Of a stretch of DNA of 64,000 nucleotides, positions 24,414 to 27,400 are shown in pieces (the stretch's first letter is position 1; every line of letters starts with the position of its first letter). The DNA comes from Lepisosteus oculatus. Its lineage: Eukaryota > Chordata > Actinopteri > Semionotiformes > Lepisosteidae. The notes beneath the pieces were generated by a model, which ran no database searches, had not been told where the DNA came from, and saw only the letters and a program-made list of their open reading frames with translations. Both the position numbers and the translations under genes were made by a program. Location of the stretch: positions 18,737,444 to 18,801,443 of the forward strand of contig NC_090703.1 of the NCBI RefSeq assembly GCF_040954835.1, given 5' to 3'.

Positions 24414-27400
24414 ATGGATTCCATTTTTCACGAGAAAGTAAGTCGTTTTGAAACATTTAATCCGATTCGGGGGGATTTAAATATATTAGTGTGTGGTTTG
24501 TCTGGCTACCTCAAACCGTGATTTTAATAAAACGAATGAATGAAACTTTAAAATTCTTCTGCATTTTCCTCTTTTAACTAGTGAAACCTCCAATGTTTAT
24601 GTTCTTTAAAAGACTACTGTTTCTGCTTTGGCAAACTTCACTGGAGCAACGTACATGTATAAACGTGTTTAAAGTTATCTGGGAAATTCCTCGATGTATA
24701 ACTGAGTCTGGTTTGGTTAGTTTTGCATATGCAGTAGGTATCGATCAGCTTCCACCACTTTTTCATATAATTCATATACATTTTTTTAAGTACAGTTTGC
24801 CTTCTTTAATTTCCATATTGTAGATGTAATCATGTGTGTAAGATGTCTTTGTATTATCATTGATTGCAGGGTGTGGCTGTCTAAAATCGTGTTGTTTGGT
24901 TGCTTAAAAAGTGAACTCCTTATTTTGAGTTGACTGTTGTACTCTCTGTCATAGCAAGAGGGCTCCCTTTGCGCCCAGCATTGTCTGAATAACCTACTCC
25001 AGGGGGAGTATTTCAGCCCTGTCGAGCTGTCCTCCATCGCACAGCAACTGGACGAAGAGGAGCGGATTAGAATGGCAGAAGGAGGAGTCACTAGCGAGGA
25101 GTATAGGACCTTTCTGCAGGTAACAGCACTGGGGCTTGGCCATTTATGGGGGGGGGCAGGAGAGCCCTTTTCAAGACTTTTGTCTTCCAATTCCAGCAAT
25201 CTGAGCAAAATCAAGCAGGACCCTACAACTGTTATAAGTAATGTTACCATTAATTCTGAAACAATGAACTGAACTGTAGGGCAACAGGTTAACTCAGTTC
25301 TATCAGATCAGGTGAGCTGTGTTAGATTGAAAATGTTGCACTGTTATGGTGATAGATTGAACAGTTGGTTTTCCTCTGTCTCTAGAGACCCTGTGAGCAA
25401 TCTGAGCAATCCCTTGAACTGATTCTTAAGGCCACTAGGAGCTCTGTTTGAATATTAACAGATATTGTGGGCAAATATTCTGATGGCCACACAGTGGGTG
25501 TACTTTTTTGTCTCACTGATTGTAACTGAGATACTGCTTTCTGGGACACTGCACATATGTGTCCTTCCTCTCCAAATTCTTCATGAACAATTTAATTCAT
25601 AATGTGAGCTTGGAGGGTGGCACGCTGGAGTTTGTATGTTCTTCCTGTGTTCGTGTGAGTTTCCTCCAGGTGCTCCAGTTTCCTCCCACAGTCCAAAGAT
25701 ATAGTGCTAGGTGAATTGGCTTGTGGGAAAGTTGGCCCTGGTGTTTGTGTGTGCATGTTTGTGTTTTTTTCTGTGTGTGTCCTGCAGTAGACTGGTGTCT
25801 TGACCAGTTTCCCTTGATCCTGAACAGGATAATGGTTAGAAAATGGATGGATGTGAGCTCAGCATTCCTTATTAAGTTATCAATTATAGCCCGTTGCTTG
25901 CAGTACAAGCAAAATATAGACCAGACCCATTGTCATGCATATTAACAATAATAATCGCCAGGTGTTTACAGAGTCCTGTGGTGCACAGCTCGGGTCATTA
26001 ATAGGCAGTTTAGTTCCTAGGGCATATTTGCTTTGCACTCTAAGTATCTTTAGGGGAACTACTTCTACCTGGACTACATTTAAATATTTAAGAGTTTGTA
26101 GTTCAGGTGGGTAGCTGCGTCAGCACGCGTAGGCTGCAAAGGAACAAGTAATAGGTTTATTCCATGCTGAAAAAAAGAAGAAAGAGAACACAACGTTTCG
26201 GCCGTGGAGCCTTCTTCAGGTGTGACACCTGAAGAAGGCTCCACGGCCGAAACGTTGTGTTCTCTTTCTTCTTTTTTTCAGCATGGAATAAACCTATTAC
26301 TTGTTCCTTTAAGAGTTTGTGCTTGTCTGCTTTTTCGTATTCAATACCTTGGTTTTAGAATGATTTACACATGTCTTTAGAGGAGTGGAACAGAATGGCC
26401 TGCATCACAAGCATTGACTATGGTCTCACCTCTCCTGATGCCTATGAGTGATTGGCATTTCTCCTTCTGTAAAAGGAGATGTGACTATCCCTTCTATTTC
26501 AGGTGCTAGCTTATACTTCTACTGTTTTAGGACTCCTCTAGTACTTACTGATGACAACATGTATCTAGCTTTGTCTTTTTCCTGTTCTCACAGCAACCAT
26601 CTGGAAACATGGATGACAGTGGCTTCTTTTCAATTCAAGTGAGTTTTATAAAGTTGCACAGTTTAAAAAAAAACTCAAATGTAAACTAAATATTAGAACC
26701 GGTGGATTTTCAGGATTTATTCTTATTCTTAATTTATTCATTTGACAGGTAACTTCATGCAGTTCTTGTGTCTTTCATAGAACATTATTAAATTAAAGGT
26801 AACTGTGTAGACTGTAGACAGAAAAGGAATATTATTTTAAGCTGAAATAATATAAATGATATATAAGCTGAATTATAAATATAAGCTTTGTATCTTCAAA
26901 ATATTTTTTTGGAACTGAAATCTGAATACACTGTAAAAAGTTAAAATTGGATATAATATACTGTCATGTATACAAATATATACATGTAAACACATGTTTT
27001 AGGCTCTTTAAGTTTTTTTTTAAACTTGTTTTCTCTTTTCTTTGTGCATAATAGGTGATAAGTAAAGCACTGGGAGTCTGGGGCCTGGAACTGATTCTTT
27101 TCAATAGTCCTGAATATCAAAGATTGATGATTGACCCAATGTAAGAACTTTGTTTACTAAAAACTAATATAACGGTATCAAAGGTAAAAGGAGAAAAGAC
27201 AGATATGCCTGAAAATCATTTAATCTGTATTCAACTCTGTTGTATCTTTGTATTAAAATCCATTGCAGAATGGATTACTCAATATCCAATAGTTTATCAT
27301 TAAATACCTTAAACGTCTTGTGAATTGGGGTGGACCGGTGGCTCTGTGGCTAAGGATCTGTGCCTGTGGCTGGAAGGTTGCCGGTTCAAATCCCTCAGCC

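What the first reader, a model, noticed from the sequence alone, without database searches (positions are those of the whole stretch)
26087..26320. Retroposon-like insertion that ends in a perfect 83-bp palindrome
Seen: a head of about 40 bp, then an exact 83+1+83 bp inverted repeat, bounded by a perfect 13-bp direct repeat. Known: 13-bp target-site duplications are typical of LINE-mediated insertion, while foldback structures usually belong to DNA transposons or arise from rearrangement. A SINE-like unit with no poly(A) tail whose 3' half is an inverted copy of its 5' half is unusual. Inference: the palindromic form may itself be the mobile unit, or may arise by template switching during reverse transcription. 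In the ATXN3 pre-mRNA it would form a long dsRNA hairpin, a candidate ADAR or Dicer substrate.
Basis: partly seen in the sequence, partly recalled or inferred. Interest (0 to 1): 0.75.

Follow-up and report, generated by a model that had tools for sequence, protein, structure and literature searches.

The report
Palindromic Penelope-type retroposon, one tail
A short jumping sequence in this fish-like genome lands as a hairpin-shaped DNA palindrome hundreds of times over, and the marks it leaves suggest that both cut strands of the target are copied from its RNA and then stitched together.

Summary
The palindrome is real: 86-bp arms, 100% complementary, 1-nt centre, 13-bp direct repeat. It is not isolated: the host genome holds at least 516 exact palindromic centres with 0-20 nt between the arms. 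I fetched the 50 places that call listed. Exactly one side carries the 38-nt "head" in 47 of 50, neither in 3, both in 0. A 12-21 bp target-site duplication passes threshold in 39 of 50, against 1 of 484 mismatched pairings. Centre fillers are mostly different (42 distinct in 50) and resemble pieces of the arms. So most palindromes look rebuilt at each insertion, not copied. Both ends show target microhomology. Two start zones about 40 nt apart, one per strand, match the optional "tail" and two reverse-transcription start sites of Penelope-like elements (PMC11167929, PMC3846280). I read it as a short, probably non-autonomous Penelope-type retroposon: each strand of the cut target primes one cDNA, and the two are end-joined. 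The parent reverse transcriptase/GIY-YIG gene was not seen because the genome search stopped answering, so membership is provisional.

The parts
26087..26099 (+). left target-site duplication TTTAAGAGTTTGT
   Evidence: 13 of 13 identical to 26308-26320
26100..26137 (-). 'head' = inverted 38-nt tail of the template RNA (distal reverse-transcription start side)
   Evidence: similar boundary in other copies; exactly one side carries it in 47 of 50 palindromes
26138..26223 (-). left arm (antisense copy of the template)
   Evidence: 86 nt, 100% complementary to the right arm
26224..26224 (.). 1-nt centre (G), the junction of the two arms
   Evidence: in other copies 0-20 nt by the search pattern, mostly different
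26225..26310 (+). right arm (sense copy, ends at the proximal start site; the last TTT may belong to the duplication)
26308..26320 (+). right target-site duplication TTTAAGAGTTTGT
7503..7517 (+). left target-site duplication of second palindromic copy
   Evidence: 15 nt, 93% identical to 7732-7746
7520..7732 (+). second palindromic copy: tail + arms 7561-7642 / 7651-7732, 8-nt centre
7732..7746 (+). right target-site duplication of second palindromic copy
40445..40525 (-). single-arm copy without tail, 15-nt duplication 40430-40444 / 40531-40545 (one mismatch)

Best explanation
It is one copy of a high-copy, short, probably non-autonomous Penelope-type retroposon. The template RNA (sense = minus strand of the left arm, plus strand of the right arm) is about 84-124 nt, starting near ACACCTGAAG and ending with a 38-40 nt tail. 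The pattern across copies suggests these steps. (1) An endonuclease makes a staggered cut, leaving roughly 12-21 nt that become the duplication. (2) Both exposed 3' ends prime reverse transcription of the element RNA after about 1-3 nt of pairing; one strand starts at the distal site (tail included), the other at the proximal site about 40 nt upstream. (3) Each cDNA runs to the RNA 5' end or stops early. (4) The two cDNAs, inverted relative to each other, are joined by microhomology-mediated, template-copying end joining, which leaves a filler at the palindrome centre that usually differs between copies. Shown by sequence in the sampled copies: the one-tail rule, duplications, two start zones, target microhomology at both ends, diverse arm-like fillers. 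Inferred: the Penelope enzyme, strand order, one or two RNA molecules, the joining enzyme.
For: 516 palindromic centres, control 0. One tail in 47 of 50, both in 0, none in 3; tail left 24, right 23; duplication above threshold in 39 of 50 against 1 of 484 mismatched pairings. The tail scores separate cleanly: 19-36 on the tail side of the 47, 4-11 on the other side of all 50. Duplications are AT-rich: 0.75 against 0.62 in flanks. Of 50 loci, the 30 with a perfect duplication scoring 9 or more entered: tail-side start 114-131 nt from the centre in 30 of 30, tailless-side start 75-87 nt in 26 of 30. Microhomology 2.04 nt at the tail side (26 of 30 placed) and 1.70 nt at the other (27 of 30 placed), against means of 0.57 and 0.61 and maxima of 1.31 and 1.41 when duplications are dealt to other loci. 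42 distinct fillers in 50; in the first 40 loci the 29 fillers of 8 nt or more match the arm over 6.9 nt on average, against a mean of 4.5 and maximum of 5.1 in 1000 shuffles. A copy with both arms cut short (at 29 and 24) and a perfect 15-bp duplication, L071:1493-1648, found outside the sampling pattern. Published parallels: inverted pLTRs with a 31-bp tail on one of them, duplications of 8-10 bp, palindromes at the inverted junction (PMC3846280); both target strands cleaved and extended, two adjacent internal start sites corresponding to the 30-40 bp tail, AT-rich targets (PMC11167929).
Against: No RT/GIY-YIG gene was linked to the element: the PF01541 search of the host genome did not complete. 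No hammerhead match in Rfam at E up to 10, although hammerheads are reported in PLEs. Duplications here are longer (mostly 13-14) than the 8-10 in PMC3846280, and 11 of 50 loci gave none above threshold. With a looser alignment setting only 29 of 50 duplications passed and 6 of 50 loci seemed to have two tails; one search supersedes this. Some fillers recur (G/C 5 of 50, GACACCTG 4 of 50), which repeated use of one microhomology or copying of a palindrome could explain. In PMC11167929 no difference in start site between the strands was seen in vitro, whereas the rule here is strict. The 50 loci were chosen by a pattern that demands intact inner arm ends and come from the first places on two contigs (32 on C1, 18 on C2). 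Microhomology is inflated somewhat because the duplication was extended as far as it would match. Outside the sample, single-arm or partial copies (5) were at least as common as palindromes (3).
Confidence: 0.68

Rival explanations
1. Self-priming (snap-back): one cDNA, or an antisense RNA, folds back at its 3' end and is copied into the second arm; only one end is primed by the target.
For: Proposed for A. vaga Penelope palindromes (PMC3846280). Fillers are more self-complementary than shuffles: 77 of 185 positions against a mean of 43.5 and maximum of 62. Arms of one locus share variants more than chance: 32 of 168 against a mean of 7.2 and maximum of 15 under random pairing (54 of 62 loci used, a few places twice).
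Against: Copying back along the first cDNA should carry the tail onto the second arm or stop at random; instead the tailless side stops at 75-87 nt in 26 of 30 and no locus has the tail on both sides (0 of 50). Microhomology to the target at both ends.
Confidence: 0.18
2. The palindrome itself is the heritable mobile unit (a foldback DNA transposon/MITE or a palindromic RNA copied whole).
For: The 40 scored of 1886 candidates are near-full palindromes (but the query was one); a few fillers recur.
Against: 42 distinct fillers in 50; the two ends differ by the tail, so they are not plain terminal inverted repeats; duplication length varies 12-21; single-arm copies exist.
Confidence: 0.06
3. A SINE moved by a LINE, with twin priming or inversion of the LINE kind.
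For: 13-15 bp duplications and short length fit LINE-mediated insertion (established knowledge); twin priming is known for L1 (recalled).
Against: No tRNA found and no poly(A) at the ends; one tail and one tailless start in 47 of 50 is not a LINE feature I know of. The LINE complement of the genome was not searched.
Confidence: 0.08

Closest known systems
Penelope-like elements with inverted pLTRs and optional tail (Adineta vaga Pen2a, PMC3846280)
   Same: Inverted terminal blocks, a ~30-40 bp tail on one of them, short target-site duplication, palindromes at the inverted junction
   Different: Here the sampled palindromes have at most 20 nt between the inverted blocks (set by the pattern), copies number at least hundreds, duplications are mostly 13-14 bp, and no ORF was seen
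Poseidon of Anolis carolinensis (PAc, PMC11167929)
   Same: Two RT start sites bounding the tail; both target strands cleaved and extended; AT-rich targets
   Different: PAc is autonomous and tandemly arranged; in vitro the strands did not differ in start site, whereas here the two ends differ in 47 of 50; no hammerhead hit here
L1 twin priming
   Same: Two primers on the two target strands copying one class of RNA, with an inverted arrangement
   Different: L1 twin priming is occasional and gives unequal, partly deleted pieces (recalled); here it seems a frequent outcome with two preferred start zones

Membership tests
Penelope-like elements (PLE) | ORF with telomerase-like RT and GIY-YIG endonuclease in the element or its parent | not tested
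   Search of the host genome with PF01541 unanswered in every attempt
Penelope-like elements (PLE) | Terminal blocks (pLTR) in inverted arrangement | tested here: met
   516 centres; 50 loci; that the arms are pLTRs is inferred from the arrangement
Penelope-like elements (PLE) | 30-40 bp tail optionally on one of the inverted blocks | tested here: met
   one side 47 of 50, both 0, none 3
Penelope-like elements (PLE) | Variable target-site duplication in AT-rich target | tested here: met
   39 of 50, 12-21 bp, 31 of the 39 without mismatch; AT 0.75 against 0.62
Penelope-like elements (PLE) | Minimal type I hammerhead motif (reported in PLEs; not treated as defining here) | tested here: inconclusive
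   no hammerhead family at E up to 10; whether Rfam models catch minimal PLE variants is unknown. A core-like string CTGAAGA...GAAAC is visible by eye only
SINE | tRNA-like RNA polymerase III head | tested here: not met
   ARAGORN 0 in the window; no tRNA family at E up to 10
SINE | 3' poly(A) or LINE-derived tail | tested here: inconclusive
   No poly(A) at either end; LINE 3' ends of the genome not searched
Foldback DNA transposon / MITE | Terminal inverted repeats at both ends with duplication of fixed length | tested here: not met
   the ends differ by the 38-nt tail in 47 of 50; duplication length 12-21

The most novel reading that the evidence does not exclude
A non-autonomous Penelope-type retroposon whose normal product is a palindrome. 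Insertion is bidirectional: one strand of the cut target starts at the distal site and the other at the proximal site, and the two cDNAs are then end-joined with templated fillers. Palindrome formation would thus be a standard Penelope integration step and not an accident.
Probability: 0.45. Interest if true: 0.78.

Novelty: new variant of a known kind. Interest (0 to 1): 0.6.

Why it matters
How Penelope-like elements integrate is unsettled: PMC3846280 favours self-priming, while PMC11167929 shows both strands cut and extended but says further steps are yet to be validated. Several hundred natural insertion products with readable ends and centres allow a statistical test: one start site per strand, and end joining in the middle. 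The hairpins, 80-odd base pairs of near-perfect dsRNA each when transcribed, could also be a source of ADAR or Dicer substrates in introns (inference).

Tried and rejected
Chance palindrome or assembly error: rejected by copy number and by different centres and duplications. MicroRNA matches in Rfam are below their gathering scores and reflect the hairpin shape. Hammerhead ribozyme: no Rfam match. tRNA-derived head: none. Literature search for six arm strings: 0 papers in that library. Searches with Penelope plus palindrome, inverted, twin priming, self-priming, tail, Neptune and Poseidon terms showed capped lists of 20 of 231, 20 of 405, 20 of 25, 12 of 14, 3 of 3 and 12 of 69 papers; no listed title or opening abstract describes a palindromic non-coding Penelope family in a fish. 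I opened only four papers, in part, so this is weak evidence of absence. One search (templated insertion, polymerase theta, retrotransposon) gave listings only. Public collections: two patterns gave 0 and 0 places in viral contigs and 0 and 1 in genome contigs. The one match, L001, lies in an open frame of a bacterial MAG and looks like chance. A looser alignment setting suggested 6 of 50 loci with two tails and 29 of 50 duplications; the tail-specific score gave 0 of 50 and the tighter boundaries 39 of 50. One background stretch of 300 scored 28 for the tail; it is the known tail fragment at L071:2166-2202, and the next highest is 12, below the threshold of 16. Ratio of palindromic to single-arm copies genome-wide: not obtained; the 17-mer count did not complete.

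Full report
Observation. The window holds an exact inverted repeat at 26138-26223 / 26225-26310 (86 nt arms, 1-nt centre), preceded by a 38-nt head (26100-26137) and bounded by a perfect 13-nt direct repeat. A second palindromic copy (7520-7732; arms 94% complementary, 8-nt centre, 15-nt duplication with one mismatch) and a single-arm copy (40445-40525; 15-nt duplication with one mismatch) lie in the same 64 kb. The unit lies between a Josephin exon and a UIM exon of an ATXN3-like gene.

Host-wide copies. The host genome is held (1.2 Gb, 813 contigs, unnamed; that it is a fish is inference, no call names it). A DNA search gave 1886 first-look candidates, of which 40 were scored; all 40 match nearly the whole palindromic unit, on both strands as a palindrome should. 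That ranking favours palindromes, because the query is one. A pattern of two 17-nt inner arm ends with 0-20 nt between gave 516 places and 0 for the control. This is a lower bound, since both inner ends had to be intact.

Sample. From I examined 28 loci (L002-L029), which are 22 distinct places; three of these (L005/L012, L006 and L017, all on C18) share the same near flanks and duplication and look like one insertion copied with its surroundings, leaving 20 independent insertions. All 28 show a 13-16 nt duplication with at most one mismatch under the search used. From I fetched all 50 places that it listed of 516, in positional order: 32 on C1 and 18 on C2.

One tail per insertion. Scoring each side of the 50 for the 38-nt head/tail gave exactly one side in 47, both in 0, neither in 3 (L054, L056, L066, all with shortened or decayed arms); tail on the left in 24 and on the right in 23. 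Scores separate cleanly: 19-36 on the tail side of the 47, 4-11 on the other side. The sampling pattern does not involve the tail. A duplication scoring 8 or more (up to two mismatches; 31 of 39 have none) was found in 39 of 50, against 1 of 484 for flanks paired across loci. The 11 below threshold include ten that were, whose arms are 61-95% alike, so decay is a likely reason. A looser boundary setting had given 29 of 50, null 1 of 297. Duplications are mostly 13-14 nt (23 of 39) and AT-rich (0.75; flanks 0.62).

Two start zones. For the 30 of 50 loci with a perfect duplication scoring 9 or more, the tail side begins 114-131 nt from the centre in 30 of 30 and the tailless side 75-87 nt in 26 of 30; the other four are shorter (35, 48, 56, 71). 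Target bases next to the element match the element's own continuation for 2.04 nt on average on the tail side (26 of 30 placed, 4 dropped because their end string was not found) and 1.70 nt on the other (27 placed, 3 dropped), against 0.57 and 0.61 when duplications are dealt to other loci. Extending each duplication as far as it matched inflates this somewhat. Both ends therefore look primed by the target.

The centre is mostly made anew. Among 50 centres there are 42 distinct fillers, reverse complements merged; the commonest are a single G/C (5) and GACACCTG (4). In the first 40 loci, fillers of 8 nt or more (29) contain longer stretches of the arm than shuffled fillers do (6.9 against a mean of 4.5 and maximum of 5.1), and fillers are more self-complementary than shuffles. 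Copying pieces of nearby ends is a mark of microhomology-mediated, polymerase-theta-like joining (established knowledge). The copy at L071:1493-1648, found outside the sampling pattern, has both arms cut short and joined directly, with a perfect 15-nt duplication.

Same source for both arms. Substitutions shared by both arms of a locus exceed random pairing (32 of 168 against a mean of 7.2; 54 of 62 loci had arms found by the script, and a few places occur twice). This fits one RNA, or RNAs of one source copy. It fits self-priming as well.

Single arms. Outside the sampled palindromes, the fetched stretches (148 kb) and the window gave 3 further palindromes and 5 single-arm or partial copies; the call printed only loci with more than two hits, and the window. 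Of the 3 palindromes two have a duplication with at most one mismatch and one (L044) only a weak 17-nt match with three mismatches; of the 5 others, two have one (15 nt with one mismatch, 10 nt perfect) and three gave none. The true ratio is unknown because the genome-wide arm count did not complete.

Interpretation. Published Penelope-like elements can end in inverted pLTRs, one of which may carry a 31-bp tail, with palindromes at the inverted junction; self-priming was proposed (PMC3846280; passages and whole Discussion read). The Anolis Penelope protein cuts and extends both target strands and starts at two adjacent internal sites that bound the tail (PMC11167929; parts 1 and 2 of 4 read). 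Hammerheads in PLEs are mentioned as minimal variants in PMC7229834 (passages); PMC7599744 was seen in passages only. The anatomy here follows directly if each strand primes one cDNA from a different one of these sites and the cDNAs are joined end to end. Self-priming does not readily explain why the tailless arm stops in one zone and no locus has two tails. The strictness of the rule (47 to 0) suggests that the two start sites are used in a coupled way; the mechanism of coupling is not shown.

Limits. The parent gene was not found because its search did not complete, no hammerhead match was obtained, and only one genome was examined. The template is probably non-autonomous because the sampled palindromes have no coding body, but a longer parent may exist. 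The predicted RNA hairpin is very stable; editing or dicing was not testable.

Noticed in passing
22513-23107 and 37665-38299: A pair of similar repeats in opposite orientation (89-93% over the main blocks); the second contains a 5S rRNA match (38125-38243, minus strand, 50 bits), so probably a 5S-derived SINE.
   Followed up: partly
35726-36502: Serpin exon (Pfam Serpin, E 2.8e-41) downstream of the ATXN3-like gene.
   Followed up: partly
L005, L006, L017 (contig C18, three places): The same element copy with the same near flanks occurs three times on C18, a segmental duplication or an assembly repeat.
   Followed up: no
L071:1137-2202 and L044:330-1284: Two or three copies of the element lie within about 1 kb, suggesting insertion hot spots.
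   Followed up: no
L033: Both arms share a longer pyrimidine tract (TTCTTTTTTT) not seen in the other loci listed, a possible sign that both arms came from one RNA.
   Followed up: no
sense arm, window 26225-26310: Read by eye, the sense strand carries AATAAA and splice-acceptor-like pyrimidine tracts followed by CAG; Penelope elements are known for introns (recalled; intron retention in PMC3846280 passages).
   Followed up: no
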